From an uncultured bacterium (lineage in GTDB: Bacteria; Cyanobacteriota; Vampirovibrionia; Gastranaerophilales; Gastranaerophilaceae), in the NCBI GenBank assembly GCA_949300485.1, contig CASGEL010000001.1, positions 62,001-126,000 on the forward strand: a DNA stretch of 64,000 bases, given 5' to 3'. Below, piece by piece: positions 6,798-55,037 of this stretch (its first letter is position 1; each line of letters begins with the position of its first letter). A model generated the notes under the pieces. The model had not been told where the DNA came from, ran no database searches, and saw only the letters and a program-made list of their open reading frames with translations. The translations under genes and the position numbers were made by a program.

Positions 6798-7361
6798 ATG
6801 GATAATATCAATTTTACAGGTTTAAGAAATATAGGTGCATACATGAAACCATTACCGTATGCAATGCCAAATACAACCAAAACATATATGATTGTTAACC
6901 TTACGGATGATTTTAACGGGAAAGATTTAACTGAATTTAAAAAAGCGGCAAAAAAATGTGAACCAATCATTGGCAAATGCATATTTCCTTATAATTCTAA
7001 ATTTATACACATAATGACCAATGTTATAAATAACGGAAAGGATCTTCCTGATTTAGCCGTAAACCATATTATAATCCCGGCACAAAGAGAAACTTTGTCT
7101 ATGTTCAGTTATATAGCAAAATTAACAAAAAGAATTGCACAAATGACTAATGAAAGTTTTGATATTCACAAAGATTTCAAATACGGCCCGGACGGTGATA
7201 ATTTTATCTTTCCTGCCGACAGAGTAAGTAATTTTAATCCTGAGAATCCCGAGAAAACACATGAATTTCTTGATGAAATATATTCCCCTGAAACAGACAG
7301 AAAAGTTGCAATAGTAATAAACAGACATATACAAGCTCGAATGGAAGACTATCTTAAATAA
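6798..7361 (+). CDS. Conserved-looking protein of unknown function, INFTG type
   Basis: A 187-residue soluble, mixed-charge protein with no family I recognise. The start is placed at 6798 because AAGGAG lies at 6781-6786. The frame's earlier start codon has no such site and lies in the tyrS promoter region. The N-terminus, MDNINFTGLRN, holds an F-T-G motif seen at the same place in other unknown proteins of this window (18232-18561; looser forms at 8589-9020 and 54738-55037). The remainder contains FNGKDLTEFKKAAKKC, which may be a cofactor-free alpha/beta fold. It is divergent from tyrS, single-gene, and ends at a bidirectional terminator. Confidence 0.75.
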   Translation: MDNINFTGLRNIGAYMKPLPYAMPNTTKTYMIVNLTDDFNGKDLTEFKKAAKKCEPIIGKCIFPYNSKFIHIMTNVINNGKDLPDLAVNHIIIPAQRETLSMFSYIAKLTKRIAQMTNESFDIHKDFKYGPDGDNFIFPADRVSNFNPENPEKTHEFLDEIYSPETDRKVAIVINRHIQARMEDYLK

Positions 7362-7411: not shown

Positions 7412-7786
7412 TTAAATCTGAGCCTCCAATGCTCCGAGTTCTGAGCGTAAATCTATAATTAAAGAATTATAATATTCAAGCCATGTTTCACCCGTCTTGA
7501 TATCTTTCACCTCAGATTCACAAACTGCTCTAATTCTTTTTTCATCCAATGTATCCAATTCATTATGTATTTCGTTTATTCTTTTTTCAATAGCAGCTTT
7601 TTGTTTTTCATTTTCATATTGAGGATTATCAATAATCGATCCGTTTAAGTATATATATCTGTACTTTTCAGCCAAATAATTTTCATATACGTCATCACTT
7701 ACTTCAATATTCAATATGGCATCATCAAGCTGCTCTGCCTCACCTGCACCATTTAATATTTCATTTTCAACATATATATATTTCAT
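7412..7786 (-). CDS. Small phage-tail-associated-like protein
   Basis: A 124-residue protein placed directly after the tail-fibre-like gene (3 nt between stop and start). It has an acidic N-terminal half (KYIYVENEILNGAGEAEQLDD) and a helical C-terminal half ending KTGETWLEYYNSLIIDLRSEL. In phages, small genes following the fibre gene often encode assembly factors or tail-fibre caps, and the C-terminal pattern resembles the tails of such proteins, but I cannot assign a family with confidence. The pair is bounded by its own promoter and terminator, so it probably works with the upstream gene. Confidence 0.6.
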   Translation of the reverse strand: MKYIYVENEILNGAGEAEQLDDAILNIEVSDDVYENYLAEKYRYIYLNGSIIDNPQYENEKQKAAIEKRINEIHNELDTLDEKRIRAVCESEVKDIKTGETWLEYYNSLIIDLRSELGALEAQI

Positions 7787-7789
7787 AAT

Positions 7790-8419
7790 TTATTTAACCC
7801 TCCTGTAAGCATGCAATTTTAATGTGTAATCCGTAGTATCATTAGCACTTGTTGTGTTATAGACTGAAATTTTTCTGCCACTGGAAGTTAATAAAGTGGC
7901 AATACCTGCTGAAAAAGCATATCCGTCAGCTCTTGATGCCCTGCAAATCGGCATATTAGTAGTCAAATAATCTGTTTTTAAATATAAAAAGAAACAAGAA
8001 TGCGAACCAGTATCTGATGTCGCCAGCATAGATACCAATATTTCGTATTTATTGGTTTTATCTGGCAAATAACTTGATAATGAAAAGGTTTGAGTTACAT
8101 CTTTAGTAATAGACTTGTTTGCAATAGTTGCCTGTTTAATTGTCCAAGACCCATCTAGAGCTGAAGTATTAGCTTTGGCATCAAACAGCTTTTGACCTGT
8201 TTTACTTATATTAGAAAGATCCAGATCTAATTTTTGTTCTGCTAATTCATCAATTTTATCCGTAACTTCGCTTATACTGGTATCTATACTAGTATTTGAA
8301 TCATCAATTCTAGCATTTGTATCTTCTATTTTAGACAACACATCAATGAAGTTCGCATTAACTTCATCTGCTTTTGCCTTTGTCCCCGGAACAAAAGAGT
8401 ATGGAACACTATATGTCAT
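7790..8419 (-). CDS. Phage-tail-fibre-like protein
   Basis: A 209-residue protein. Its N-terminus, PYSFVPGTKAKADEVNANF, is the characteristic opening of many phage tail-fibre or tail-collar proteins. It is followed by a coiled-coil segment rich in S/D/T (NARIDDSNTSIDTSISEV) and a beta-rich C-terminal domain that would be the receptor-binding or trimer part. The start at 8419 has AAAGGA 5 nt upstream; the frame extends 17 codons further up without such a site. No capsid, portal, tail-tube or lysis genes are near. It may be a relict, a cargo gene, or a domesticated surface fibre; the family call is from motif recognition. Confidence 0.65.
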   Translation of the reverse strand: MTYSVPYSFVPGTKAKADEVNANFIDVLSKIEDTNARIDDSNTSIDTSISEVTDKIDELAEQKLDLDLSNISKTGQKLFDAKANTSALDGSWTIKQATIANKSITKDVTQTFSLSSYLPDKTNKYEILVSMLATSDTGSHSCFFLYLKTDYLTTNMPICRASRADGYAFSAGIATLLTSSGRKISVYNTTSANDTTDYTLKLHAYRRVK

Positions 8420-8478
8420 AAATATCCTTTCTGACATATTCAATAGCGCAATTAAAATGGGGAAACTCAATTAACAGC

Positions 8479-8588: not shown

Positions 8589-9020
8589 TTATGCAATAAT
8601 GTTTGCGTTAGCACCAGCAGGATTTGCATCCGGTTTTGGGGCTTTTTTACCTTTAAATAATTTTGCTATTGGCTCATAAGTATATTTAGTAATGGTATTA
8701 CCAACAACAGCTACATAATGACCTACTGTTTTCATAAAACCAGGTTTTGCTTTTAACTCTTCTTTTGATAATTCTTTAATAGCTTTAGGGAATACTTTTG
8801 GAAGAACTGCCAATGCTGCTGCAACTACAGCCAGCCCAACAATTGTCCCAACGACTTTTTTACCAGCTCCTGATTTCTTTTTATCATCAGCGGCTGTACT
8901 ATTAACTGCAGCTGAAGTTTGAGCTTCAGTTTTCGGCTTTGAAAATGCACCTTCTCTTTCTAAGATACTTGCCGGGCCATCACCAAAACGAACATTAGAA
9001 ATTGGACTAACTGCTAACAT
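8589..9020 (-). CDS. Small single-pass membrane protein of unknown function
   Basis: A 143-residue protein with an Ala/Gly/Val-rich transmembrane segment (GKKVVGTIVGLAVVAAALAVL, about residues 53-73) flanked by Lys. The disordered N-terminal part carries the short motif ISNVRFGDG close to the start, comparable to the F-x-G motif of other unknown proteins here. A basic C-terminal part ends in a Pro/Ala-rich tail. A very strong ribosome binding site (AAGGAGGT) precedes the ATG, so it may be highly expressed. Divergent from the large acidic protein at 9189. No known family was recognised. Confidence 0.75.
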   Translation of the reverse strand: MLAVSPISNVRFGDGPASILEREGAFSKPKTEAQTSAAVNSTAADDKKKSGAGKKVVGTIVGLAVVAAALAVLPKVFPKAIKELSKEELKAKPGFMKTVGHYVAVVGNTITKYTYEPIAKLFKGKKAPKPDANPAGANANIIA

Positions 9021-18231: not shown

Positions 18232-18561
18232 TTATTTTGTAACCTTAAATTCATTTCTATATGCATCTAACAATTGAGTTGCTTCTTCGTAAGAATGATT
18301 TTCCTGATATTTATCAAAAATCATATTAAGCTGAGCAACCTGAGTAGGATTTTTCAACAAAATATTCATATCATCCTCGATAGAATCTGTAGAAACCTGA
18401 GATTTTCCTAAAGTTGCAGCAGGCATATTTGTCAAATCTTTAATTTCCTTGGATTCGACAGGAGCAGCCGGAGTTTCAGGGGTTGCAGAAGTATCATTTG
18501 TAGATTTTTGGATACCTGTGAAGTTTAAACTATTAATGTTTTTGTTACCTATTTCTCTCAT
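18232..18561 (-). CDS. Small protein of unknown function, NFTG type
   Basis: A 109-residue protein. The N-terminus has INSLNFTGIQKS (residues ~9-20), the F-T-G motif shared with the protein at 6798-7361. A Pro/Ala/Thr-rich linker (TSATPETPAAPVESKE) is followed by a helical C-terminal part (QLNMIFDKYQENHSYEEATQLLDAYR). AAGGTGAT precedes the ATG. No recognised family, no membrane segment or signal peptide. The gene is convergent with aroQ. Confidence 0.72.
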   Translation of the reverse strand: MREIGNKNINSLNFTGIQKSTNDTSATPETPAAPVESKEIKDLTNMPAATLGKSQVSTDSIEDDMNILLKNPTQVAQLNMIFDKYQENHSYEEATQLLDAYRNEFKVTK

Positions 18562-29871: not shown

Positions 29872-32800
29872 TTATAATGATTTAATCACTTTTCTTTGGG
29901 TTGTTCCCTGAACCTTTTGATTATCGTAATTAGGTTCTTTACCCAAAGCCCATCTGAAACCTGCTGTTAATACAATACCTGTTCTGCCGCCATTTCTTAT
30001 CATTGTTTGGAAAAATGCCGTAAATCTTTCACCCCAAGATTTTTGAACCCCAACACCATATTCAACATAAGGTTTTACAGACAATTGAGGGAGTCTAACA
30101 TCTTGAGCCATTACATCAGTTCTATCCATAATGCTCCAAACCATATTAACACCTAAATACGGCTGCCATCCGTTTTTCAAATTAGCAATAAATTTAACAC
30201 CAGGAACAATTGTTATTGCATGCAGCGGATCAGAGTCAATTCTAACACCTGCAGCATTTGTATAATCAAATGTATTAGCAAACGTATAACCTAAGAACAA
30301 TGACGGTTGAACTATAAATTTACCATCTTTCATTTCCCAGTTATAACCGGTTTTAGAAGCGATACCTGCGGTTAACATTGCAAAGTGATCTGTTCCGTAT
30401 TGTGTATAAGCATCACCGGCACTTGCACCTGCAGATAATGTTAAACCGGTAAAGAAATTACCTTTATACAAAGTTCCGGTTACACCTAATGCTCCTCCCT
30501 GCTGGTTCATACTTACACCGTTGAAGGACATATGAGAACCGTTATAACCTACAAAGGTTGATAACACCCCTTTAAAGCCATGTCCAAGATCAACAAGGTT
30601 GGAATCACCGCCGTACATAGCGCCGTAAGCAACATTAGAAACTCCTATTCCGCCTCTTAAATTAACCTGTTCAAATGTTGTATACGGTTGAATCCACATA
30701 GCATTTGAAGTTTCAGGAAGATTGCTTCTTCTATATGCAGGGATATCATTTATTGCATACCGGTTAGAATTTTCTGCAGTTAATCTCATCATATAAGGAT
30801 ATTTTGTATATCTGTCCATATGATAGAAACCGGCATTTAAAGTCTGTAATTGAGTTAAATAACCACCCAATTGAGTTGCAACAGGGGATGCCATAACGGC
30901 AGGGTTAACTGAACCAATATCAGGAGTTGAACCGCCTTGTCTTGCAAACAACAAGTTACCATTATTATACGATACATCATACTTTTGAATTGGTCCCATA
31001 ACAGTTGTTACACCTTGATCAAGAGCAACATGATTTGCTAAATCTCCATATGCAACTTGAACTGAAGTATTATTAAGCAAAGCATCACTTACCACATTCA
31101 AGCTATCCTGATCAAGGATTAAATTACCATTGCCATATACCCTGCCTGCACCGACCTTATCCGCAATTTCATTTTTCAAATCAATATCAATATCCAAATC
31201 TACATCACCTAATAAGGTCAAACTGTCAAAGTATAGATTTTCAATACTTGCAGGACTTGGATCTGTTGAATAGCTACCATTACCAAGGTCAACTACAGAT
31301 GTATTTTGTAAATTAATACCTGTTCCTGCAGCAAATTGAGCATCTGAAAGATTTCCTAACGTTGCGCCTGCTGCCATTGCGAAAACACCTTCATTTACAT
31401 TCAAGCTGCCGTTAAAATTATTATTTCCCCGGAATACCAATGCTCCTGATCCGTTTTTATCAACAGTACCTGTACCGTTAATTTTAGATAATGAAGCATT
31501 GTTATCAGCATTAACAACCAATGTACCGTTTTGATTTATATTAGTTGTACCTGAAATATATTTTGTATTATCTGAATTAAATATTACACTTCCGTTATTG
31601 ATATTAGCAGTACCTGTGAAGTTAGAGTTATCACCGGTCAGAGTCATATCATTTGAACCGTTTTTATTTAAAGTACCGCTTCCGCTAAATGAACCTGTTG
31701 TAATATCACTACGGTTATTGGTAATAGTAACAGTATTACCACTGCCAATATTTGTATTACCTAAAATGTATGTATCACTTGAGGAAGATTGAGTATAATT
31801 CATATCCCCATCCGCTATATTTAAATTACCGGTAAAGTCGTCGTTTTTACCTGACAAATTTAAATCATTATTCCCTGATTTATTAACAGTACCATTACCG
31901 GCAAGGCCGCTTGAAACTGAAACATCTTTATTAGCGGAAACAATATTAACAACTGTATCTTCACCTGCTGCATAAATATCGTTTTTACCGTTTGCATCTC
32001 TGTTACCTGAAAAATCAGTATCAATAATTGTCATATCATCAGCAGTATAAATAGCTCCCCCTAAACCGTTTGAGGTGTTATTTGTTATTTCAGAATTATT
32101 GATAATGAAAGATTCTGAATTTGTATTATTAATAACACCGCCATTGCCATTTGAAGAACTTGATGTAATATTTACATTATCTAAATTAACTGTAGAACTT
32201 CCGTTATTTGCAATAACGACAGATCCGCCATTATCTGAATGCGCATTTTCTATTGTCAAATCTTTAACTGTTAAATCAGTATTATTTTGAGTAACTTCAA
32301 AGAATGATTTTGTATCTTCTCCGGAAATTACAGTATTTCCATTTGTTTCGCCTTTTACAACAAATGAACCTGATGCAGTTGTTCCTAAGCTTTCACCTAT
32401 AATATACGGATCAGGATCATCTGCATGGAATTGGAAACCCCTGTCACCACTCTGATTATTCATTGCCTTTAATGAATTTTCATCAGTTGCTTTGATTGCG
32501 GTAAGAATAATATCCTGTCCGCCTTGAGCAATAGTTACGCGATATTCATAAGCGGAAGTTGCCCAAAAATCCAAACTATCATCATTATCTAAAGTTAAAT
32601 TACCGCCAAGAACATTAATATTATAGCTTTCTCCAAGACCGTTATCTGTTTTTTGATCATTTAAGTTAATATCTTTCAGTGCCAATTCCAAAGCTCCGCC
32701 ATTACCTCCCTTTGAAACTAATTTATCCGAGGTTCGAGTTGGTAGAGTCAAATCAACATCAATTTTTATTTCTGAACCTGAAGTTGTCAAGTTAGCAAAA

Positions 32801-35800
32801 GTTTTTGTTGCGGTATTGTCATCTATCAAATCAATTACTGAATCAGTAATTGAATAGCTTCCGTTATAAGTATCTCCGGTAAGCTCAATTGTCGAATTGG
32901 CAAAAGATACCTGATTTCCAGCATAATTTGCAAGATCTCCTGCTAAAGTATATGTACCTTCTATAGGAGAATTACTACTGAAATTAATTTGAGCACCGCT
33001 TGCACCATTACCAAACCCAACAACAGAAGAACCAGAGCCTACAGTAAGATTACTGCCAACAGCTGCTGCATAGTTAAGAATTGCAGAGTTATTTGCAATC
33101 ATATTAAAATCAAATGCGGTTGTTGATTTGCCTGAAACTTTCAGTGTTCCTTCATTTGCATTAGCTGTAAATGAAGTGTCAACAGTGCTTTTATTAGCAT
33201 CAAATGTTAAAATGCCGTTACCGCCTTTATTTAAAACACCTGAGCCTGAAACGTTTGCTAAAGTATCTTCAATACCGTCAGCAACATTGTAATTTAATTT
33301 TGCACCTGAATTTATGTCTGTTTTGCCGGCGAGATAAGAAGTATCTGCCTCTTTATTAAAGGTTACAGCACCGCTATTGATATCTAATGTACCTTCAAAA
33401 GTATCATTTTTACCACCTAAAGTAAGCGTTCCCTCACCGTCTTTTATAACAGAACCGCTGCCTAAATCTCTTCCTTCTTCATCAATATATGCCGTCAGAT
33501 TTGAAACATTTACATCATCAGAAGTTGAATTATTAATATATAACTCAGCCCCTTGAGCGATTGCATAAGAATTTGCATTGATAAAGTTATTGTTATCAGC
33601 TGATGTATAAGATAATCTGCCTCCGCCTATCATTACAGAACCGGTGAATGCTGAATTATCCCCAACAAGATTAAGATTTCCAGCACCAAGTTTTGATAAA
33701 GTACCTTCGCCGGATATTGCGGTTAGGTTATCATCACTATCTGTGCCAACAGAATATTCTAATGTACCGCCATGTTCAATAACGGTATTTCCGCTTACAT
33801 AGTTACCATTGTCATATGTGTAAGCAAGAATACCTTCTTTAATAGTTGTTGTACCAGTAAAGTCATTATCGCCTATAAGCTGGATTTTACCATCACCTGT
33901 TTTAATAAAGTTTTCATCATCGCCACCGGAGATATTACCTATAGTCTGACCATCAATATTATTACCTTCATCATCTTGTTCCAAAACATTTGCTTGTAAT
34001 GTTGCACCGTTTGAAATTATTGTATTACCGCCAAAATAAGTATCAGAAGTGTCATCTGCAAGATAAATTAATGTACCCTCTTCTATATTAGCAGTACCTG
34101 AAAAACCTGAACTATTTCCTGAAAGTGTTAAATCACCCGCACCCTGTTTATTAAAGTTAGAACCTTCTACACCTGAGATATTTGAAACTGTCTGGTTTGC
34201 AATATCTTGATTGATAATAAATGTTAAATTAGTACCTTCATTTGCAAGATTGGTTAAACCGCCAAGATACCTATCATTATCAGATGCGGCCTGATAAATT
34301 ACAGAACCGCCCTCAATTCTTGTTGTGCCGCCAAAACCTGAATTATTTCCAAGCAGATAAAGTGTTCCGTTATTTGTTTTAACGATAGTACCCGAACCGT
34401 CTTTTCCTGCTGAAACATTTTGCATAATCTGCTGTTGTAAAGTTTCAGATTGAGCAATATTCATAGTTAAAGTAGAACCCTGATTAACTCTTACAGCACC
34501 GCCTACAAAAGTATCACTATCATTTGCGGTATAAACAACATTACCTGCTTCAATATCAAAAGTACCCTTAAAATCAGAGTTTGAACCGTTCAAATTCAAT
34601 GTTCCGACACCTGTTTTTTCAAAAGTGGTTCCTGTATCACCTGCTATACCGCTATTGATAGTACTTGTTGTATCAGCAGCACTAGTTATAAACTCTACAT
34701 TAGCATTATTTGCAAGATAAATATCATTTTGTACGCCGTTATTATGAGTGTTTACAGCAGTTACACCGAAATTAGAATCAGTAATTGTCATATTAGCAGA
34801 CGTATAAATAGCACCGCCTAAACCAGTAGTTGCTCTGTTACCATCAACAGTTGCATTAGCTATTGTCATACCGGATGAAGCATTATAAATAGCACCGCCG
34901 TTTATTGCTGCATGGTTTCCGGTAATTATTGATTGATTTATTGAAAATTTACTACTGCTGTGGTTTGCAACAGCACCGCCATTACCTGCTAAAACTTCGT
35001 TTTTTACAAAATCAACATTATTTAAAGTAATTTCAGCAGCATCATTTCTTGCATAAATAACGGAACCGTCTTTTATATTAGTGTCTGAAGCATACCTTTT
35101 TGCTTTCTGAACAGATACATTATACATTAAGAAATCAGTATCATTCACAATCTCAAACATTGAACCGTTTGTTTGACCATCCGGAGTAAATTCACCGATA
35201 CTTATCCTGTACCCCGGATCAGTTGTACCATCAGGATTTGTAATAGTAATAGATTCCGGAGCTTGACTCAATTCTATGTCATTATAATACCACTTACCTT
35301 CATTTTCATCATGTCTAAGACTTTCATCATCAGCTAAGAGTTCAAGATCTTTCAAAATTCCTGATAATATACTCTTGTCTTGCCCGACTAAAGTACCCTG
35401 AACAGTAAATGTACCGGCTGATGTAGTATCAAGATCTCTATAGATATTGTAATTATTATTTTCCTGTTTTCCGTCTTTGGCAATAAAGCTGAAACCTCTG
35501 TTACCCCCGATACCGTTACCGGAAGGATCATATACATTCATATCTCTCAATGTATCAGTACTTGAAGTTCCTTCAGGAGTAATCTCAATACTATCTTGTT
35601 CATGTCCGTCTGCCGCACCACTTGAAGCTGAATTAACACCATATTTATATACGTTTGTTGCCCAACTTAAAATTTGTACACCGTCAGAATCCGCAACCTT
35701 TAAATCATTATTACCTTTAAATACTCTGATTACACCTTTGCTTTGTTCATTAGTATCAGGGTCAGTAATAAATAATCCGTTATCATCTGTTACAAATAAC

Positions 35801-38800
35801 CTTGTAATTTCAACGATACCTTCACCTGAATTTGCAGTGATTGTATCCGCAAACGGCATTGTTCCTGTATTTTCATTTAAGTAAAGGTTTACATCAAGTG
35901 TAATTCCTCCATCTATATCAGTTGCAGTTGCTCCGCCTGTGAAATTAAGACTATCAAATGTATAATTATCACCTGCTACCTGGTTAGAAAGATCAAGTAT
36001 TGAGCTATTCAATGTATAATCAGCACCTGCCAGATTATATTCTAAAGCTCCCTGATCATGCCTGTGTCCGTCAGTAATTTCAGAACCTTGAATATTATCC
36101 CCAAGACCAACAACAGAATTATCAAATGTAATACTGTCGTTAACGCCGGTATGATTATAAAGAGTATTCAAAATATATGTTGCATCACTGAATATCAAAT
36201 TATTAGCAATTGTTCCTTGGGAAGTCAGCCAGCCGCTGTTTAAAGTATAAGTACTTTCATCTCTGCCCCTGCCTGAAACTGAAACAGTACCGCCGTTTTC
36301 TAAAGTTATATTTGCAAAACCGGAATTAAAATCAAATGATGTGTCATCTGAATTATACGCAAATGTTGCAGGAGAATCAGCACCATCATTAGAACCGTCA
36401 ACAAGAATATTTGCTTTACTATTAAAGAATGTATTTGAAGTAGTCTTTTCAAAATTTACAGTTCCGTTATCAATATTTAAAATTCCACTGAAATCTTCAT
36501 TTTTACTGCCCTTTAAAGAAACCGCACCGGAACCTGTCTTGTTTATATTACCTGATCCTGAAAGATCTGCTGAAATCTCTGTATCAGAAGTATTATTTAT
36601 ATAAAATGTAGCATTATCTGCAACAGATATTGCACCATTATTTATATTTTTATTTCCTAACAAAGCACTTGCGCCGGAAGCTATGTTTAAAACAACACTA
36701 TCTAATGCGGATTCTGAATTGTTATTGCCATTAATAGTGAGCGAACCTGTTTGAACATTTACTGTTGAACTTGAAATCAGATTATTCAAAAGAATGCTGC
36801 CATTTGTCATAACAGCTCCGCCTGATCCTGTTATTTGATCAGCCAAAATCAATGAATGATTTTGAGCTGCATTCAAATTTAACATTCCGTTATTTGTAAT
36901 TACAGAATCTGCAGTACCGGTGTTTGTTAAAGTATAATCACCTGTTGCTGTTATTGTTAGGTTTCCTTGTGAACCGTTAAATATATAATTACTTGAATTG
37001 CCCTCAAAAGAAGCATCCGTAATAGTTGCCCTGCCAAGGTTATAGATAGCAGAACCGTTTTCAGCAGTATTATTTGAGAAAGTAACATTGGTTAATTCCA
37101 AATCATTTCCGGCATTATAAATAGCTCCGCCGTTTCCTGTTGCAGAGTTAGAAGCCAATGTAACATTAGAAAGATTTGTTTCACCGCCGGTTACATAAAT
37201 AGCACCGCCGTTAGCTGCTGAGTTTTTTTGTATTGTCGAATTTGTTATATTAACAGTTGAATTTTCATTACTCTGATAAATTACAGCTCCGCCCCTATCA
37301 GAAGAAGCTGCATTTTGAATTGTAATATCATCAATATTTAATGTGGTATCATTAACAACTTCAAACATTGACAAACCTGTAGCAGTAGAACTTGCATCAG
37401 TACGGCCGTTAATTGTATCCGCTCTATCATTAGTTCTTCCTTTAATATTCAAAGTTCCTGCTAATGTTTGCTCTAAAGCCTGGCCAATATAATATTGATT
37501 GTCAGCACCAGCGAGGTGGAAAGTTCTCTCGCCTGAAGTTTCATGGTTCAATGTGTACAAAGTATTACCAACATATCCGCTTGCAATAATAGTAATAGTG
37601 TCAGAACCAGTCACTGTTGAAACTGTATATTGATAAATATTAGAACTCAATACTCCTGAATAATTGTTAGCAAAAGTTATTCCATCTAAAACATCATAAG
37701 TTTCACTGACCAATAAACCGGTATCGTTATCCATATTTAATGCCTTGATACTGCTATCAGTCAATGTAACCTGAGCATTACCGCCGTTTGCAACAAGTTT
37801 ATCAAAGGCACCAAGTCCGCTGTTTGCAGTAAAGTCAAAATCAAGATTTAAGTTATTTGTACCTGTAGTTGTCAAATTTGCAATGGTAGTTGTTGTAATA
37901 CCGCCATTTGCAAGATTTAATGTTGAACCGCCGTTGAGTGCATAATTCCCGCTCAAGGTAACATCGTTTCCGACTATATTCACAGTAGTATTGCTAAATC
38001 CTGTCGTGTTACCTACAGCATTGGTTAAGTCTGATGAAAGATTATAACTTCCGTTTGCAAAATTTATTGTTCCGCCTGAATTTTCACTATCAAATTCAAA
38101 TGTAGAATCCGAATTTATATTATAAGTATCATTTGCAGCTGCATTAAAGTTTAGAGTAGAATTGCCGGCAACTTCAGCATTAAAGCCGAATGCATCTGCA
38201 TCTTCTGCCTGCTCATCAGCGTTAACAGTTAATGTTCCTGAATTAACATCTACTGTTCCTGTAAATTTATCCATATTAACGGTTAAATTACCTGAACCCT
38301 GTTTATCCAATGTTCCAACACCTGACAAAGATGATATTTTTTCATCACTCTGAAAATTTGTTGAATAAATCAGTTTAGAGTCTTTATTAGCAATATTTAC
38401 CCTGCCTGCAACAAATGAATTTGAATCGGATTTTGTAAATCCTAAATTTCCGCCGGAAATAAGAGTTTCACCTGTGAAACTTGAGTTATTGACTCCATCT
38501 GATGCAGTAACTAATGAATCTTTTACTCCGGATATTTCTAATGTTGCACCCTCAGAGCCTATTAAATTATTATTCAATTCAAATGTCGTAGTAGTAGATT
38601 TATTATCAACTCTAAATGTAGCTCCATCTGAAATATTTATATCTCCTGACAGCATTTTATCAACATCGTCAGCTGTATCATTAGCTACAAATTCCAATTT
38701 CCCGCCATTAACAAATGTAGCAACATTATTACCACGTCCGGAACCATTATACCAATCTCCGGTGATTTGTAATGTACCTTCACCATTTTTAACTAAATGA

Positions 38801-41800
38801 CCGCCAAAAGATTCAAATTTACTGCCATTTATTGTACCTGCAATAACATTTTCCGCAACATCAAAGATTAAATTAGTACCTTCATTGACTATATTTGAAG
38901 AACCAAAGAACTTATCATCATTAGAATCCATATTTACAATCAAACTGCCGGAATTAAGGTTCAACTTGCCTGTAAATCCTGAATTATCACCATTCACAGT
39001 AACAGAGCCCTTGTCTGTACTGTTACTGTCACCTATATTAAGAGTTCCGTTTCCTGTGAATGCACCGTTATTAAGATTCAAGTCTGTATCATTTTGAGTA
39101 AAGATATTAACACTTGATCCGCTATTTATATCTGTAACACCTAAAATATATGAATCATTCGTATCATCAGCCGTAAAATTGACAGAACCGCTGTTAACAT
39201 TCAAAGTACCGTTAAAGGCGCTGTTTGTTCCTGTCAGATTTAAGGTTCCGCTATTATTATTAACAACCCCGCCGCCTGCAATACCGCTTGATACATTATT
39301 GGATGTTCCGCTAAAGTTCACAACACCTGAATCTGCGATATAAATGTCATTTACACCTGTTGAATCTGTATTATTAGAAAACGTTGAATCCGTAATAAAA
39401 ATTGAAGTTTCCGTATAAATAGCACCGCCCAAACCGCCTGCGGTATTATTTGTAAAATCAGTATTAGAAATACTTAAACTTTTACCTGCGATTGCTGCAA
39501 TAGCACCGCCATCTCCGGCTGCTTTGTTATTAGTCAAAAGAACATTATTTATTGTAACAGTTGCCAATCCTGTTGTATTGTTCAAATAAAGAACAGAACC
39601 GTCTTTTATATCTTGATTTTGTCTTAGGGCATCTCGAATAGTTAAATCACGAATAGTTAAATCCGTATCATTAACTACTTCAAAGAATGAACCGTTAGTG
39701 CCTAAACTACTATCGTCCAAGCCGACATACTCATCTGCTCTTTCACCTGAAATTATTGAAGTTTTTTTGTCCGCACCATTAACTGTGAATTGACCTGCTA
39801 AAGTTGTATCCAAATCTCGTCCGATTTGATATGTTGAATTATTTACAACACTGAAACCTCTCAAACCGTTACGTTCATGGTTCATTGTACGTAAAGAATC
39901 AGGTGTTGCTGCTCTTACAGCATTAAATAGAATACTGTCATAAATATCAGAGCCCTGAGATCTGTCAGCACTAATACTGTACTCATAAACATTGGTTGAC
40001 CAATCAGCCATATGAGTGTCTTGACCAACAGCCAACTCTAAAGTACTTCCATTATTGTCAATAACCTGAATTGATTTACTACCAGATCCGTCATCATCAA
40101 TAATTGCAAAATTAGAAATATTTATCTGACCGCTTCCGCCTTTTACAATAAGTTTATCAGCTTCTCCATCACCTGCTAAAGATACATCAACTGACATAGA
40201 AGAATTATTCTCTGATGTAAAACTGTCAAATGTATATTCACTTATACGATCACCTGTAACACCTCTATCTGCCATCAAATTAAGAACAGAATTGTTAATT
40301 GTATAATTACCTTCATAGGCATTTTGATTCAAAGTAATATTTGCACTGTTCAAAATAACATTATTACCACTAGCACCTGCTATTGTATCTAAAGCTATAT
40401 TGCCTGCAGTAATACTTGCTGTTGCATTTTGAGCACCATTTACAAAATTCAATCTACCGTCTCCGCCGAGTGAGAGAGAGGAATCTGAACCTGCTGTATA
40501 ATTTAATGCTGCATTGTTTGAGATATTAGCTGTGAAATCCAAATTAGAAGCATTTGCATTTGTACTTGTTACAGTAAGAGTACCCTCTGAGATATTTGCA
40601 GTGCCTGAAAATGCTGAATTAGTTAAGGTTAGAGTCTGCGCACCATTTTTATTTATTGTTCCGATGCCTGTTATTTCACCATTGAGAGTTTCATCAGCGT
40701 TTGCGATATAATTCAACACGCTGTCAACAACAACGTGTCCGCCAAAGAAGGAGGTATTATCATTTTTAACAAAATTAGTTGTACCTCCATACAGATTAGC
40801 AGTCCCGGTAAATTCTGAGTTATTGCCTATAAGAGTAAATACTCCGCTGTCATTTTTATCGAACCTTACCCCTTCGCTTGAATCTGAGCGAAAGTTTCCG
40901 CCAGTATAATCAAGAGAAGAATCCATACCCGTCGAAATTTCGGCACCGTTAAGGAACTGAACCTCTCCGCCGAAAATTGTATCATCATTTGCGTCTGCTC
41001 TATATACAAGCTGGGTACCGTTTAAAACAGCATTACCTTTATAATCGGCATTATTACCAAGCAGCATAAAAACAATAGCGTCAAAGTTTAAAGCACCGGA
41101 ACCGGCAAAATGTCCGCCGGATAATAAACCTGCTCCTCCATCATTATCGATTGTTAATGATGAATCTGCACCTATGGTAATTTTTGAATCTGCACTATAT
41201 CCAAAGAATGAATCATTGCTATCTGCCGTATCAAATACAACAGAACCCTGTGCGATATTTACATTACCATGATATCCTGAGTTTTGACCGCTGATATTAA
41301 GAGTTCCCGCTCCTGTTTTGGTGAAAATGCTTGATGTTGAACCTGATGCAGTTTTAATACCGCTTAATAATTCAGATGTTACACCCTGACCAACAGTAAA
41401 TAAAACATTAGCATTATTTGCAAGGGTAATATCGTTATCACCGCTTGAATCTGTATTGCCTGAGAAGTTAGAATTTGTGATATTCAAATTAACGGCAGAA
41501 TAAATAGCACCGCCAAGCCCACCGGAGCTGTTACCTGTAAAATCTGCTCCGCTGATATTAACATGAGCAGCATTTTCTATATCAAAAGCACCGCCATTGC
41601 CTGCAGCATGGCTATTTTTAAATGCCGCATCTGTGATATTAATTGTTGCGTTATCAACAGATGAATAAATAATAGAACCGCCTTGAATAGTCTGACCTGT
41701 TCTATCTGCATCCTGAATTGTTATATCACGAATATTTAATTCAATAGCACCTTTGGTATCAGTCAATTCAAAGAAAGAACCTTTTTCATCTTCCGATATT

Positions 41801-44304
41801 ACATAACTTCCATCATCATCAGTATGATAGGTAAAAGTTCCATCACCATTATCCGTATAAGATACTCTTTGACCGGAAATAACACTTTTATCTTTACTTA
41901 CACCGTTAACAGTAAATATTCCGTATTCAGTTTGCCCCAAATCTCTTGCAATATGATAAACATCTGAATCCTGAACCAGTGAAAAACCTCTTGTCTGCTC
42001 TGCCTGATAATTATTCATTCTTTTTAAAGAATCAGGGGAAGCAGCATTTTGAGGATTGAAAGTTAGGCTGTCATAATAACTGTTTGCTTCATTTGATTTT
42101 GCAGCATCAATATTATATTCATAAACATTAGTTGACCAAGCTGCAATAGTCGGCTCCATTCCGTCTTCTAACAAGCTGACATTACTATTGCCGTTATTTT
42201 GAAGCACAAGAATATTCTTAGGATAACCCCTGCCATCATCATTAAGGATAGCAAGACTTTTTATATCTAAAATTCCGCTGCCACTATTAAAAATCAACAA
42301 ATCACTAACAGGATTAGCGCCAAGATTGACATCAATACTTAATGAAGAGCCGTTAACAGCACTAAAGTTATTAAATGTATAACTGCCAAGTGCTGAATTT
42401 GTATTTTGCGGGTTCATAACATTTAAATTAGTATTATCTAAAGTGAGGTTATTTAAAGTTGTAAGCCCGTTAGCTAGAGCCAAATCTGTATTTACAAATT
42501 CAACGGAAGAAAGTCTTGACCCTAAATCACTGTTTAACACAAAGTTGGCATTTGTATTACCTGTAAAACTCGCACTACTATCGCCGCTGGCAGCCGCGAT
42601 AAAAGAATCGTATACATTTGTTGTACCGGAATTTGCGGTATAGTTAAATGATGCACCGTTATTAAGTGTAAGGTTTGCGAAATTATCATTATCAAGGGTA
42701 TCAGATGATTGTGCGGTATAATTTAATGTATTTCCATTCAATGTAACATCTGCATCATCCGCAAAGAACTTATCACCATTAGTTCCGTTAAAAATTAAAT
42801 CGCCGCCTTGAATATTTGCATCACCGTGGAAATTTGAATTATCTCCTGATACGGTTAAACTTCCACTTCCGGATTTTGCAAGATTACCTTCTCCTGAAAT
42901 ATTATATAGGGAATCGTTAGTTGAATTTTGATAATTTAATGCCGCACCTTGAGCAATTTGATTTGAAGATGCATTGATATACCTCCCCCCCCTATAATTC
43001 AGAGTGCCGCCCAGTATGATTACATCTCCACTGAAAGATGAATGATAGCCATTCATCAAATTGAGGGTATTATCACCTGATTTTATAAACTGACCTTGTA
43101 CACCTTCAGTTGTTTCAAGTTTACCTGCAGCAAGATCATAGTCACCATTTGATGTATCAAATTCTACGGCACCGTTACTTCCGTTAACGAAAGTTCGCCC
43201 TACAAGAACAGATTGATCCAAATTGCCGCCGTAAGTTAATTTGCTATTTTCACCAATATATGCATTTCCATTATCAAAATCACTATTATCTCCCTCTAAT
43301 TTAAGTTTACCGCCATCAGAAAGAATAACATTAGATTTTCCGTTAGAAGCCAAACCGCTAGAAATAGTATTAACAGTATCAGAGCCGGTACCGTTAACTA
43401 AAAGATCCGCACTGGTATCCCCGCTTTGGTAAAAATAAATATCATTTGCCCTATTGCCATTGTTATCGGTATTGTTACTAAAAGTATTTCCACCTGCTAA
43501 TGTAATATCACCTGTTGTATATATCCCGCCGCCAAGAGCAGAACCTTGATTATTTTCCGAGCTAACACTGTTGCCATCTATAGAAACTCCGGTTAAAGTT
43601 AAATTGTGAGTGTTATAAATAGCACCGCCATAAGCATTTCCTGTATCACCCAAACTAAAAGTTGGCGACTGCTCTGAACTAACACTGTTGCCAGAAAAAA
43701 CACCACCATTTATGGATAAAGTTCCCTCATTAGCAATAGCACCGCCATATCCATTAACTACATTATTCGCGATAAGAGGAAGATAATAAGTTTCACCTCG
43801 CACGAGATTATCAGTATAAGAAACATTGTTCAGAACTACAGTACTGGCATTATCCTGAATATGCAAACCTGCACCATACAAAGAAACAGAAGATGATGAA
43901 GGGTTGTCATATATACCAAAGTTATCAAACTTCAGATTGTTCAGCGTCATACTGGAACCGTTATTTAAACGGTAGCCATAGTTAGTTGTACCACTTGTTA
44001 TAGTATAGACTTGCCCCTGACTTCCTCTAATAGTCAAATCAGTAATTCCATCAAGTGTAAATAAGTCATCACGTACGGTTATGTTATTCTCAACGTTTAA
44101 AATATTCCCGCTGGCATAATAATTTGTATTAAAAATACTCCCTTCAATTTGTGGCTGCCATGATTGGTCAGGTTGGTCATCATTTTTAATCATATATTCC
44201 GCCGCTAATGCCGAGTTCGCAGCAAATGCCACACTTCCGACTACTACAGCACAAGTTAATGCAAATTTTAAGACATCCTTCCTATTTAACGGTAATCTCT
44301 TCAT
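29872..44304 (-). CDS. Giant autotransporter adhesin (4810 aa) with five repeat modules
   Basis: A type V secreted surface protein. A signal peptide (cleavage near ALA|AE, residues 34/35) leads into a very long beta-helix passenger. The passenger is made of autotransporter beta-strand repeats (GAGTLNLSG-type) and polymorphic-membrane-protein-like motifs (GNGGAI, GLGGAIYT). A composite junction module recurs five times, marked by W(S/A)TNVYEY-type text, then SL-x-MN...RGF, the FTV-x-G line, and a FFEV-x-ND line. The ~280-residue C-terminal part is an autotransporter barrel (MWIQPYTTFEQVNLRGG... GFRWALG), followed by a ~22-residue tail. A G8 tract lies inside the frame. The leader has TTGACT-18-TAGTAT. 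It ends at a terminator shared with gdhA. Function: probable adhesin or surface layer; ligand unknown. Confidence 0.9.
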   Translation of the reverse strand: MKRLPLNRKDVLKFALTCAVVVGSVAFAANSALAAEYMIKNDDQPDQSWQPQIEGSIFNTNYYASGNILNVENNITVRDDLFTLDGITDLTIRGSQGQVYTITSGTTNYGYRLNNGSSMTLNNLKFDNFGIYDNPSSSSVSLYGAGLHIQDNASTVVLNNVSYTDNLVRGETYYLPLIANNVVNGYGGAIANEGTLSINGGVFSGNSVSSEQSPTFSLGDTGNAYGGAIYNTHNLTLTGVSIDGNSVSSENNQGSALGGGIYTTGDITLAGGNTFSNNTDNNGNRANDIYFYQSGDTSADLLVNGTGSDTVNTISSGLASNGKSNVILSDGGKLKLEGDNSDFDNGNAYIGENSKLTYGGNLDQSVLVGRTFVNGSNGAVEFDTSNGDYDLAAGKLETTEGVQGQFIKSGDNTLNLMNGYHSSFSGDVIILGGTLNYRGGRYINASSNQIAQGAALNYQNSTNDSLYNISGEGNLAKSGSGSLTVSGDNSNFHGDANIQGGDLIFNGTNGDKFFADDADVTLNGNTLNYTAQSSDTLDNDNFANLTLNNGASFNYTANSGTTNVYDSFIAAASGDSSASFTGNTNANFVLNSDLGSRLSSVEFVNTDLALANGLTTLNNLTLDNTNLNVMNPQNTNSALGSYTFNNFSAVNGSSLSIDVNLGANPVSDLLIFNSGSGILDIKSLAILNDDGRGYPKNILVLQNNGNSNVSLLEDGMEPTIAAWSTNVYEYNIDAAKSNEANSYYDSLTFNPQNAASPDSLKRMNNYQAEQTRGFSLVQDSDVYHIARDLGQTEYGIFTVNGVSKDKSVISGQRVSYTDNGDGTFTYHTDDDGSYVISEDEKGSFFELTDTKGAIELNIRDITIQDADRTGQTIQGGSIIYSSVDNATINITDAAFKNSHAAGNGGAFDIENAAHVNISGADFTGNSSGGLGGAIYSAVNLNITNSNFSGNTDSSGDNDITLANNANVLFTVGQGVTSELLSGIKTASGSTSSIFTKTGAGTLNISGQNSGYHGNVNIAQGSVVFDTADSNDSFFGYSADSKITIGADSSLTIDNDGGAGLLSGGHFAGSGALNFDAIVFMLLGNNADYKGNAVLNGTQLVYRADANDDTIFGGEVQFLNGAEISTGMDSSLDYTGGNFRSDSSEGVRFDKNDSGVFTLIGNNSEFTGTANLYGGTTNFVKNDNTSFFGGHVVVDSVLNYIANADETLNGEITGIGTINKNGAQTLTLTNSAFSGTANISEGTLTVTSTNANASNLDFTANISNNAALNYTAGSDSSLSLGGDGRLNFVNGAQNATASITAGNIALDTIAGASGNNVILNSANITLNQNAYEGNYTINNSVLNLMADRGVTGDRISEYTFDSFTSENNSSMSVDVSLAGDGEADKLIVKGGSGQINISNFAIIDDDGSGSKSIQVIDNNGSTLELAVGQDTHMADWSTNVYEYSISADRSQGSDIYDSILFNAVRAATPDSLRTMNHERNGLRGFSVVNNSTYQIGRDLDTTLAGQFTVNGADKKTSIISGERADEYVGLDDSSLGTNGSFFEVVNDTDLTIRDLTIRDALRQNQDIKDGSVLYLNNTTGLATVTINNVLLTNNKAAGDGGAIAAIAGKSLSISNTDFTNNTAGGLGGAIYTETSIFITDSTFSNNTDSTGVNDIYIADSGVVNFSGTSNNVSSGIAGGGVVNNNSGTLNLTGTNSAFNGTLNVNSGSVNFTADDTNDSYILGVTDINSGSSVNIFTQNDTDLNLNNGAFTGNGTLNIGDSNSTDKGSVTVNGDNSGFTGKLNLNSGSLIVNMDSNDDKFFGSSNIVNEGTNLIFDVAENVIAGTINGSKFESFGGHLVKNGEGTLQITGDWYNGSGRGNNVATFVNGGKLEFVANDTADDVDKMLSGDINISDGATFRVDNKSTTTTFELNNNLIGSEGATLEISGVKDSLVTASDGVNNSSFTGETLISGGNLGFTKSDSNSFVAGRVNIANKDSKLIYSTNFQSDEKISSLSGVGTLDKQGSGNLTVNMDKFTGTVDVNSGTLTVNADEQAEDADAFGFNAEVAGNSTLNFNAAANDTYNINSDSTFEFDSENSGGTINFANGSYNLSSDLTNAVGNTTGFSNTTVNIVGNDVTLSGNYALNGGSTLNLANGGITTTTIANLTTTGTNNLNLDFDFTANSGLGAFDKLVANGGNAQVTLTDSSIKALNMDNDTGLLVSETYDVLDGITFANNYSGVLSSNIYQYTVSTVTGSDTITIIASGYVGNTLYTLNHETSGERTFHLAGADNQYYIGQALEQTLAGTLNIKGRTNDRADTINGRTDASSTATGLSMFEVVNDTTLNIDDITIQNAASSDRGGAVIYQSNENSTVNITNSTIQKNSAANGGAIYVTGGETNLSNVTLASNSATGNGGAIYNAGNDLELTNVTFSNNTAENGSAIYNLGRATITDASFEGNSSNYIFNGSQGNLTITATGDYTLTNTGTADSVITNNGMLNLNAAQNHSLILADQITGSGGAVMTNGSILLNNLISSSTVNVQTGSLTINGNNNSESALDSVVLNIASGASALLGNKNINNGAISVADNATFYINNTSDTEISADLSGSGNINKTGSGAVSLKGSKNEDFSGILNIDNGTVNFEKTTSNTFFNSKANILVDGSNDGADSPATFAYNSDDTSFDFNSGFANITLENGGTVSVSGRGRDESTYTLNSGWLTSQGTIANNLIFSDATYILNTLYNHTGVNDSITFDNSVVGLGDNIQGSEITDGHRHDQGALEYNLAGADYTLNSSILDLSNQVAGDNYTFDSLNFTGGATATDIDGGITLDVNLYLNENTGTMPFADTITANSGEGIVEITRLFVTDDNGLFITDPDTNEQSKGVIRVFKGNNDLKVADSDGVQILSWATNVYKYGVNSASSGAADGHEQDSIEITPEGTSSTDTLRDMNVYDPSGNGIGGNRGFSFIAKDGKQENNNYNIYRDLDTTSAGTFTVQGTLVGQDKSILSGILKDLELLADDESLRHDENEGKWYYNDIELSQAPESITITNPDGTTDPGYRISIGEFTPDGQTNGSMFEIVNDTDFLMYNVSVQKAKRYASDTNIKDGSVIYARNDAAEITLNNVDFVKNEVLAGNGGAVANHSSSKFSINQSIITGNHAAINGGAIYNASSGMTIANATVDGNRATTGLGGAIYTSANMTITDSNFGVTAVNTHNNGVQNDIYLANNANVEFITSAADTTSTINSGIAGDTGTTFEKTGVGTLNLNGSNSDFKGTFDIEAGNVVYTANDSDTFVGGAVRVNQGSTLTMNIAQSETLQQQIMQNVSAGKDGSGTIVKTNNGTLYLLGNNSGFGGTTRIEGGSVIYQAASDNDRYLGGLTNLANEGTNLTFIINQDIANQTVSNISGVEGSNFNKQGAGDLTLSGNSSGFSGTANIEEGTLIYLADDTSDTYFGGNTIISNGATLQANVLEQDDEGNNIDGQTIGNISGGDDENFIKTGDGKIQLIGDNDFTGTTTIKEGILAYTYDNGNYVSGNTVIEHGGTLEYSVGTDSDDNLTAISGEGTLSKLGAGNLNLVGDNSAFTGSVMIGGGRLSYTSADNNNFINANSYAIAQGAELYINNSTSDDVNVSNLTAYIDEEGRDLGSGSVIKDGEGTLTLGGKNDTFEGTLDINSGAVTFNKEADTSYLAGKTDINSGAKLNYNVADGIEDTLANVSGSGVLNKGGNGILTFDANKSTVDTSFTANANEGTLKVSGKSTTAFDFNMIANNSAILNYAAAVGSNLTVGSGSSVVGFGNGASGAQINFSSNSPIEGTYTLAGDLANYAGNQVSFANSTIELTGDTYNGSYSITDSVIDLIDDNTATKTFANLTTSGSEIKIDVDLTLPTRTSDKLVSKGGNGGALELALKDINLNDQKTDNGLGESYNINVLGGNLTLDNDDSLDFWATSAYEYRVTIAQGGQDIILTAIKATDENSLKAMNNQSGDRGFQFHADDPDPYIIGESLGTTASGSFVVKGETNGNTVISGEDTKSFFEVTQNNTDLTVKDLTIENAHSDNGGSVVIANNGSSTVNLDNVNITSSSSNGNGGVINNTNSESFIINNSEITNNTSNGLGGAIYTADDMTIIDTDFSGNRDANGKNDIYAAGEDTVVNIVSANKDVSVSSGLAGNGTVNKSGNNDLNLSGKNDDFTGNLNIADGDMNYTQSSSSDTYILGNTNIGSGNTVTITNNRSDITTGSFSGSGTLNKNGSNDMTLTGDNSNFTGTANINNGSVIFNSDNTKYISGTTNINQNGTLVVNADNNASLSKINGTGTVDKNGSGALVFRGNNNFNGSLNVNEGVFAMAAGATLGNLSDAQFAAGTGINLQNTSVVDLGNGSYSTDPSPASIENLYFDSLTLLGDVDLDIDIDLKNEIADKVGAGRVYGNGNLILDQDSLNVVSDALLNNTSVQVAYGDLANHVALDQGVTTVMGPIQKYDVSYNNGNLLFARQGGSTPDIGSVNPAVMASPVATQLGGYLTQLQTLNAGFYHMDRYTKYPYMMRLTAENSNRYAINDIPAYRRSNLPETSNAMWIQPYTTFEQVNLRGGIGVSNVAYGAMYGGDSNLVDLGHGFKGVLSTFVGYNGSHMSFNGVSMNQQGGALGVTGTLYKGNFFTGLTLSAGASAGDAYTQYGTDHFAMLTAGIASKTGYNWEMKDGKFIVQPSLFLGYTFANTFDYTNAAGVRIDSDPLHAITIVPGVKFIANLKNGWQPYLGVNMVWSIMDRTDVMAQDVRLPQLSVKPYVEYGVGVQKSWGERFTAFFQTMIRNGGRTGIVLTAGFRWALGKEPNYDNQKVQGTTQRKVIKSL
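32430..42060 (-). repeat. Five diverged junction modules inside the giant adhesin
   Basis: The modules lie near 42000, 39880, 37540, 35520 and 32450 (plus-strand positions). Each opens with a W(S/A)TNVYEY-like line, then a DSLxxMN...RGF line, then a line with FTV-x-G and ISG, then FFEVxND and the GNGGAI/GLGGAIYT lines. Spacings are about 2.1, 2.3, 2.0 and 3.1 kb. They are diverged at protein level, suggesting old duplication. Confidence 0.7.
42985..42992 (-). repeat. G8 homopolymer inside the adhesin frame (C8 on plus strand)
   Basis: Eight C in a row on the plus strand give G8 in the coding strand, encoding ...YRGGRY... around residue 438. It is the longest G/C run I noticed in this AT-rich window. 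Loss or gain of one base would cut the protein at about one tenth of its length, so it is a potential phase-variation site. Confidence 0.65.
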
Positions 44305-54737: not shown

Positions 54738-55037
54738 ATGATTACAATAAGTCCAGTAAAATTTAATAATACAAGAAAATATATAAGCTTTGGTGAAGGC
54801 TCTAATTTAAATAACATTAATTCAAAAGTTGGTTTGATGTCATTAGATAAAAACGCAAATGCTAAAATCAATTTTGAAAAAGACTTACATGAAACAAAGA
54901 ATGCTGATATGGTTCAATCAAACCCTATCAAAGCTCTCGGATATAATTTTGTAAAGGCTTATAATATACTATGTACGCCTAAAAGACGTACAACCCAAAC
55001 CGAATCAAATTATATTCACATACCTTATATGGCATAG
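54738..55037 (+). CDS. Small protein of unknown function, ISFGEG type
   Basis: A 99-residue protein with an excellent ribosome site (AAAGGAGG) and a consensus promoter, so it may be abundant. N-terminal text MITISPVKFNNTRKYISFGEG holds an F-x-G motif comparable to other unknowns here. The rest is Asn/Lys-rich with a helical region near KALGYNFVKAYNILC. A long leader holds a hairpin. No family recognised. The frame extends upstream of 54738, but only to a TTG within the -10 box. Confidence 0.72.
   Translation: MITISPVKFNNTRKYISFGEGSNLNNINSKVGLMSLDKNANAKINFEKDLHETKNADMVQSNPIKALGYNFVKAYNILCTPKRRTTQTESNYIHIPYMA

What the first reader, a model, noticed from the sequence alone, without database searches (positions are those of the whole stretch)
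6798..7361. Short N-terminal F-x-G motif shared by four unrelated unknown proteins
Close to their N-termini, proteins at 6798 (INFTGLRN), 18232 (LNFTGIQK), 8589 (VRFGDG) and 54738 (ISFGEG) each have a hydrophobic residue, then F-(T)-G. Outside that they share nothing. A sorting, anchoring or processing tag is a possible explanation; four in 64 kb seems more than accident in proteins of this size.
Basis: partly seen in the sequence, partly recalled or inferred. Interest (0 to 1): 0.5.

Follow-up and report, generated by a model that had tools for sequence, protein, structure and literature searches.

The report
Shared N-terminal tag in gut bacteria
Dozens of otherwise unrelated proteins in a little-studied order of gut bacteria begin with the same short, evolutionarily preserved tag; what it does is untested, but it may mark them for export through a leftover flagellum-type secretion gate.

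Summary
All four proteins are where stated, and F(x)G is kept at the same N-terminal place in 19 of 21, 17 of 22, 19 of 26 and 20 of 25 family rows. They belong to a genome-wide feature of Gastranaerophilales: unrelated proteins with a hydrophobic residue near the start, an N/P/Q-rich linker, then Φ-[SNT]-F-(x)-G: 27 of 617 genes (5.4 expected) here, 21 of 324 (4.1 expected) in families f2-f7, but no enrichment (7 of 713, 12.1 expected) in nine genomes outside the order.

Function is inferred. The genus almost lacks flagellin (1 of 25 genomes) but keeps a type III export gate (FlhA, FlhB 25 of 25; FliP 23 of 25). The order has a standalone FlhA-C protein; in 15 of 19 family loci the next gene is homologous to a tagged glucanotransferase-like protein. 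I propose an export signal (0.35). An intracellular docking tag is nearly as likely: the FliE, FlgB, FlgD and FlgE seen lack the tag, gate-bearing genomes of other orders lack it, and one genome of the same family shows 1 of 114.

The parts
6798..7361 (+). Tagged protein of 187 aa; alpha/beta body without a Pfam match or a PDB fold match at E<=0.001; tag MDN-INFTG-LRNIG
   Evidence: 19 of 21 family rows keep [IV][NST]FTG or NNFTG
6807..6821 (+). Motif INFTG (residues 4-8); F6 T7 G8 N11 are invariant in 18 aligned sequences, the first strand of the model starts at residue 9
8589..9020 (-). Tagged protein of 143 aa with a hydrophobic segment at about residues 56-73; tag MLAVSPISN-VRFG
8982..8993 (-). 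Motif VRFG (residues 10-13); F invariant in 22 of 22 aligned sequences, strict F.?G in 17 of 22
18232..18561 (-). Tagged protein of 109 aa, no Pfam match; tag MREIGNKNINS-LNFTG-IQK
18514..18528 (-). Motif LNFTG (residues 12-16); strict F.?G in 19 of 26 rows, mostly NFKG
54738..55037 (+). Tagged protein of 99 aa; leader MITISPV, then ISFG
54783..54794 (+). Motif ISFG (residues 16-19); strict F.?G in 20 of 25 rows, FRN in 3

Best explanation
Shown: an N-terminal tag, often bipartite (I or V near residue 3, variable polar linker, then Φ-[SNT]-F-(x)-G; A, S, R or K in place of G is also enriched), is carried by an estimated 40-50 proteins of this genome, recurs in other families of Gastranaerophilales, and is preserved in orthologues. 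Inferred: it is a recognition peptide for export. A docking factor of the type III machinery, for which the order-specific standalone FlhA-C protein is the best candidate, binds the F-x-G element on flexible N-termini and passes the proteins to the divergent FlhA/FlhB/FliP gate that the genus has kept although it almost lacks flagellin. The tag would thus be the address label of a flagellum-derived, non-motility type III secretion route carrying lineage-specific proteins and a few enzymes, among them starch/glycogen-type ones.
For: Tag enrichment, limits of its spread and orthologue conservation. Leader of 50 pattern hits against 973 others: N 1.85-fold, P 1.69-fold, Q 1.35-fold, E 0.38-fold; residue 3 is I or V in 21 of 50. 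Own genus: flagellin in 1 of 25 genomes, but FlhA 25 of 25, FlhB 25 of 25, FliP 23 of 25; own genome also has FliE, FliF, FliH and an FlgC-like rod gene with rod-like neighbours that I named by eye from similarity. A standalone FlhA-C protein (about 490 aa) is found in 40 of 40 genomes of the order by FHIPEP match and full-length in 19 of 19 of the own family, 0 of 58 of other orders. Directly downstream of it in 15 of 19 family loci lies a homologue of the tagged GH77-like protein L018:9453 (E 4e-10 or better), with FxR kept in 16 of 16 family members but F(x)G in only 2. FlhA-C takes part in substrate recognition in Salmonella (PMC10965912, abstract). In Chlamydia the GH77 enzyme MalQ and other glycogen enzymes carry type III signals (PMC4829429, passages); here a GH77-like and a GH13-like protein are tagged.
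Against: The FliE (5 genomes), FlgB (4), FlgD and FlgE (1 each) seen in the samples of the order do not carry the tag; FliE of the own genus has only FD[TS]GFG near residue 20 and FlgC a resembling SFxGLM near residue 50. Five gate-bearing genomes of other orders (families f9, f10, f11, f12, f14) show no tag enrichment. G061, same family, with FlhA, FliP and standalone FlhA-C, shows it in 1 of 114, and variants with R, K, A or S in place of G do not rescue it. Co-distribution of tag and standalone FlhA-C is one evolutionary event, so weak. In Salmonella FlgD, hydrophobic signal and gate recognition motif need at least 19 residues between them (PMC8983047, passages); here F stands at residue 6-14 in 21 of 50. 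Known type III signals are not sequence motifs of this kind (recalled). A Cdc48/PAN-like AAA ATPase with a looser tag (VSFTA) suits a cytosolic site. The GH77-like neighbour is missing in 4 of 19 loci, among them both of the own genus. No interaction was tested; the model of the standalone FlhA-C is poor (pLDDT 66).
Confidence: 0.35

Rival explanations
1. Intracellular sorting or docking tag: a short linear motif by which proteins bind one shared scaffold, membrane site or storage body (for instance a glycogen granule) inside the cell; nothing is exported.
For: Same anatomy: flexible N-terminus, invariant F, variable linker. Cargo includes glucan-type enzymes and, with a looser tag, an AAA ATPase that would suit the cytosol. 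The tag does not follow the gate into other orders.
Against: No scaffold candidate found; most bodies are unknown, so no common compartment can be named. Explains the standalone FlhA-C only as coincidence.
Confidence: 0.33
2. Processing leader: the N-terminus up to F-(x)-G is cut by a dedicated protease, as with double-glycine leaders.
For: G, or the small residues A or S, after F(x) are enriched; D, E and L, I, V are not.
Against: R or K are also enriched; FG and FxG interchange within one orthologous family, odd for a cleavage site; in 6798 the cut would fall at residue 8 with N11 also invariant. No protease was sought.
Confidence: 0.12
3. Common descent: the tagged proteins are diverged members of one superfamily and the motif is the start of its first strand.
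For: In 6798 the first strand begins right after FTG; 6798 and L004:11695 are paralogues.
Against: Only 1 homologous pair among 29 pattern hits at E<=0.01; bodies include GH77-like, GH13-like and alpha/beta hydrolase, and the hydrolase carries the tag in an N-terminal stretch that a related hydrolase of the same genome does not have (domain from residue 114 against 46).
Confidence: 0.05
4. Chance or composition effect: F and G happen to follow polar N-termini.
Against: Refined pattern p=1e-6 in families f2-f7; most near-miss patterns flat; conservation in four orthologous families.
Confidence: 0.02

Closest known systems
Early (rod/hook) flagellar type III export signals: hydrophobic N-terminus plus gate recognition motif
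   Same: [quoted passage not shown]
   Different: Spacing is often below the 19 residues that Salmonella FlgD needs; the second element is F-(x)-G, not the FLTLL of FlgD; the FliE, FlgB, FlgD and FlgE seen in these genomes lack the tag
Type III signals of Chlamydia glycogen enzymes (MalQ, GlgX, GlgA, GlgB, GlgP)
   Same: Enzymes of alpha-glucan metabolism with an N-terminal type III signal and no signal peptide (PMC4829429, passages)
   Different: No shared sequence motif was mentioned in the passages seen; export of the proteins here is untested
Flagellar basal bodies of Buchnera
   Same: Basal body and type III export genes kept in a symbiont, role unknown (PMC8109811, abstract; that they lack a filament is recalled)
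   Different: [quoted passage not shown] here a tagged protein set is at hand as candidates
Sec/Tat signal peptides
   Same: N-terminal targeting
   Different: [quoted passage not shown] motif after a polar stretch

Membership tests
Type III (flagellar-type) export substrates | Export gate FlhA/FlhB/FliP in the same genome | tested here: met
   G000 has a match to each over the family cut-off
Type III (flagellar-type) export substrates | Signal at an unstructured extreme N-terminus | tested here: met
   6798 model only: residues 1-10 mean pLDDT 65, residues 1-3 below 50; leaders of 50 pattern hits N/P/Q-rich, E-poor
Type III (flagellar-type) export substrates | Bona fide substrates of the same genomes carry the same signal | tested here: not met
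   FliE, FlgB, FlgD, FlgE seen in the samples lack it; FlgC has SFxGLM near residue 50 (names partly by eye)
Type III (flagellar-type) export substrates | Hydrophobic signal and gate recognition motif at least 19 residues apart | tested here: not met
   F at residue 6-14 in 21 of 50 pattern hits; rule from PMC8983047 passages
Type III (flagellar-type) export substrates | Tag occurs wherever the gate occurs | tested here: not met
   Five gate-bearing genomes of families f9, f10, f11, f12, f14 without enrichment; G061 1 of 114
Type III (flagellar-type) export substrates | Gate-dependent secretion | not testable with these tools
   needs a secretion assay
Non-flagellar type III secretion system (injectisome) | Secretin, needle, translocon | not tested
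   No search for secretin or needle families was made
Sec/Tat signal peptide | Hydrophobic core within the first 30 residues | tested here: not met
   By eye on the four sequences; the 50 pattern hits were chosen without one, so they are no test

The most novel reading that the evidence does not exclude
Gastranaerophilales run a dedicated, flagellum-derived type III secretion system. Its substrates, some 40-50 in this genome, carry a readable sequence barcode, and a freed FlhA-C domain serves as soluble barcode reader. What was read as an incomplete or lost flagellum would be a general protein exporter of a gut order.
Probability: 0.25. Interest if true: 0.9.

Novelty: new variant of a known kind. 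Interest (0 to 1): 0.62.

Why it matters
Gut Gastranaerophilales are hardly cultured, as far as I recall, and 27 of 30 tagged proteins scanned have no Pfam domain above cut-off. A tag readable from sequence alone gives a list of proteins that may go to one place or partner. If export is right, it turns the incomplete flagellar gene sets of published gut Melainabacteria genomes (PMC3787301, PMC4040986, passages) into a secretion system with predicted cargo, and offers a type III signal defined by sequence.

Tried and rejected
Unbiased k-mer comparison of N-termini was swamped by signal peptides and membrane segments. EM motif discovery found a glycine-rich motif as its best (score 223); runs seeded with SFxG or SFG scored 208-212 on real and 82-92 on shuffled N-termini, but the seeds blurred, so this is no independent support. 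That tagged proteins are unusually often membrane proteins was dropped: 8 of 50 against 121 of 948. Recent shuffling of 5' gene ends was not seen at DNA level beyond the one homologous pair and marginal matches at E 0.03. A DNA or RNA signal at the motif was rejected: F codons as background, G codons roughly so. Foldseek with the 6798 model: no match at E<=0.001; PDB profile search, best E 0.12. The model of the standalone FlhA-C was too poor for a fold search. Rfam: nothing in the window at gathering thresholds. The equation with the gate recognition motif was rejected on spacing.

Rows dropped or doubtful: rows of each family include the query itself. In the 6798 family L030 (start uncertain) and L038 lack the motif, and L032 and L040 are one sequence found twice; one search counts L030 as a hit by chance (20 of 21), I use 19 of 21. 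In 54738, L313 has a wrong start and L326 is distant; both are counted as misses. L004:11695 (MQVNFTG) falls outside the pattern used for counts because its motif begins at residue 3. The 30 tagged proteins scanned with Pfam were hand-picked from the listings and include looser variants (for example VSFTA, TFRAT, VFKSN); the 10 controls were picked by hand from 20 randomly drawn untagged genes. The only genome outside the class that was sampled (G080) is unnamed; that it is a photosynthetic cyanobacterium is my presumption.

Full report
What the window is. The window is G000:C1:62001-126000 of a 2.05 Mb draft genome in 27 contigs. A glutamate dehydrogenase from it matches Candidatus Gastranaerophilales best (83% identity), so I place it in the Gastranaerophilales (Melainabacteria).

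The observation. The four proteins and motifs are as described. Listing the hits showed a tighter form: Φ-[SNT]-F-(x)-G within about 60 residues, on proteins without a hydrophobic N-terminus, often after a start such as MKISAIN, MNLSVNP or MITISPV. With the pattern [VILPQC][SNT]F.?G this occurs in 24 of 586 soluble-start genes outside the window (4.1 expected from internal tiles, 8.8 from shuffles), and in 21 of 324 genes of families f2-f7 (4.1 and 4.7), which were not used to choose it apart from a gene list seen. Five altered patterns are flat; [SNT]F.?A and [SNT]F.?K are mildly enriched in the own genome, and one intended control, [ILV][DEKA]F.?G, is enriched there against tiles but not against shuffles. 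Nine genomes outside the order (eight of other orders of the class, one from outside the class) give 7 of 713 against 12.1 expected. With the window included the own genome has 27 of 617 (5.4 expected, 9.0 by shuffling); the excess, scaled from 43% of the genome, is about 40-50 proteins (my estimate). After Φ-[SNT]-F-(x), G, A or S, and R or K are enriched in the own genome and in f2-f7; D or E and L, I or V are not. Leader and tag occur together more often than chance (16 against 6.4, p=2e-4).

Conservation. Relatives of each of the four proteins were sought in 40 genomes. The motif stays at the same place: 6798 family 19 of 21 rows, with F6, T7, G8 and N11 invariant over 18 aligned sequences down to 20% identity; 8589 family F in 22 of 22, strict F.?G in 17 of 22, with FG, FRG, FTG, FCG and FKG replacing each other; 18232 family 19 of 26; 54738 family 20 of 25. 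In the 6798 model (mean pLDDT 92) residues 1-3 are below 50, the first ten average 65, and the first strand starts at residue 9: the invariant block lies before the fold. Codons for F follow the background, those for G roughly. Of 29 pattern hits in this genome only one pair is homologous; some of the 29 are ordinary proteins hit by chance, as the expected number demands. So the tag is a selected, protein-level, short element on unrelated bodies.

What carries it. Of 30 hand-picked tagged proteins, looser variants included, 3 have a Pfam domain above the curated cut-off (GH77, alpha/beta hydrolase, AAA); of 10 untagged controls, 9 have. Sizes of 50 pattern hits in the order run from 80 to 1970 residues. 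A 1386-residue tagged protein matches (neo)pullulanase over about 100 residues (E=2e-8). The tagged hydrolase has its domain from residue 114, an untagged relative in the same genome from residue 46.

The export machinery. FHIPEP (FlhA) is found in 40 of 40 genomes of the order, FlhB in 40 of 40, FliP in 38 of 40. The 25 own-genus genomes have only a divergent set, without the high-scoring FlhA class that 13 of 15 genomes of the other families also have. Flagellin is found in 1 of 25 own-genus genomes (G014, contamination 6%) and in 14 of 15 of the others. In G000 the FlhA gene lies with FliE, FliF and FliH, and rod-type genes exist. Earlier papers report incomplete flagellar gene sets in some gut members and read them as loss of the flagellum (PMC3787301, PMC4040986, passages). 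In addition every one of the 40 genomes has a standalone FlhA-C protein of about 490 residues; full-length relatives are in 19 of 19 own-family genomes and in 0 of 58 of other orders, where at most FlhA itself matches. Downstream of it, in 15 of 19 family loci, lies a homologue of the tagged GH77-like protein L018:9453; the F followed by x-R is kept in 16 of 16, F(x)G in 2.

Mechanism. I propose that the tag is an export signal read by FlhA-C-like docking. Shown: tag, conservation, limits of its spread, gate with almost no flagellin in the genus, standalone FlhA-C, gene neighbourhood. Inferred: binding, export, destination. The case against is serious. The FliE, FlgB, FlgD and FlgE seen lack the tag. 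Five gate-bearing genomes of other orders lack it. G061, with FlhA, FliP and standalone FlhA-C, has 1 of 114. The spacing rule of a known early flagellar signal is not met. The co-distribution is a single event, and the GH77-like neighbour is absent in both own-genus loci seen. A cytosolic docking tag explains the anatomy about equally well.

Novelty. Searches of the held library for Gastranaerophilales or Melainabacteria with N-terminal motif, type III secretion, flagella and secretion system, or FlhA listed no paper whose title or abstract start describes such a tag or export role; most subscription papers are not in that library. As an N-terminal address tag it is a new variant of a known kind.

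Noticed in passing
G000:C7:69665-71140 (L135:9662-11143): Order-specific standalone FlhA-C protein with an extra N-terminal part of about 130 residues (small domain and helices in a poor model), no membrane half; in G000 two GNAT-like genes (weak Pfam matches) lie beyond its 3' end on the other strand.
   Followed up: partly
L128:7226-8083: A further, shorter FHIPEP-like protein (285 aa, 73 bits) in G000; similar pieces were found in G018 and G037.
   Followed up: no
G000 to G024: Own genus almost lacks flagellin (1 of 25) yet keeps the export gate.
   Followed up: partly
L166:13652-14437: Protein next to fliE with several helix-turn-helix matches; it starts MLINNNIHNNLTDKQNIYFSGK, close to the tag.
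   Followed up: no
window 29872-44304: Giant ORF of 4810 aa on the minus strand with a signal-peptide-like start.
   Followed up: no
window 7412-8470: Two small genes that look like phage tail or fibre genes (judged by eye only) close to the 6798 protein.
   Followed up: no
L132:1691, L170:962, L157:2610, L190:1380: Proteins starting MGLAASQAR or MGLAASQGR in genomes of the order and in G041 of another order; possible structural substrates of the gate.
   Followed up: no
L136:19244-19687 and relatives: FlgC-like proteins of the order have SFxGLM near residue 50, resembling the tag; the relative in G047 (other order) has PFSEVM there.
   Followed up: partly
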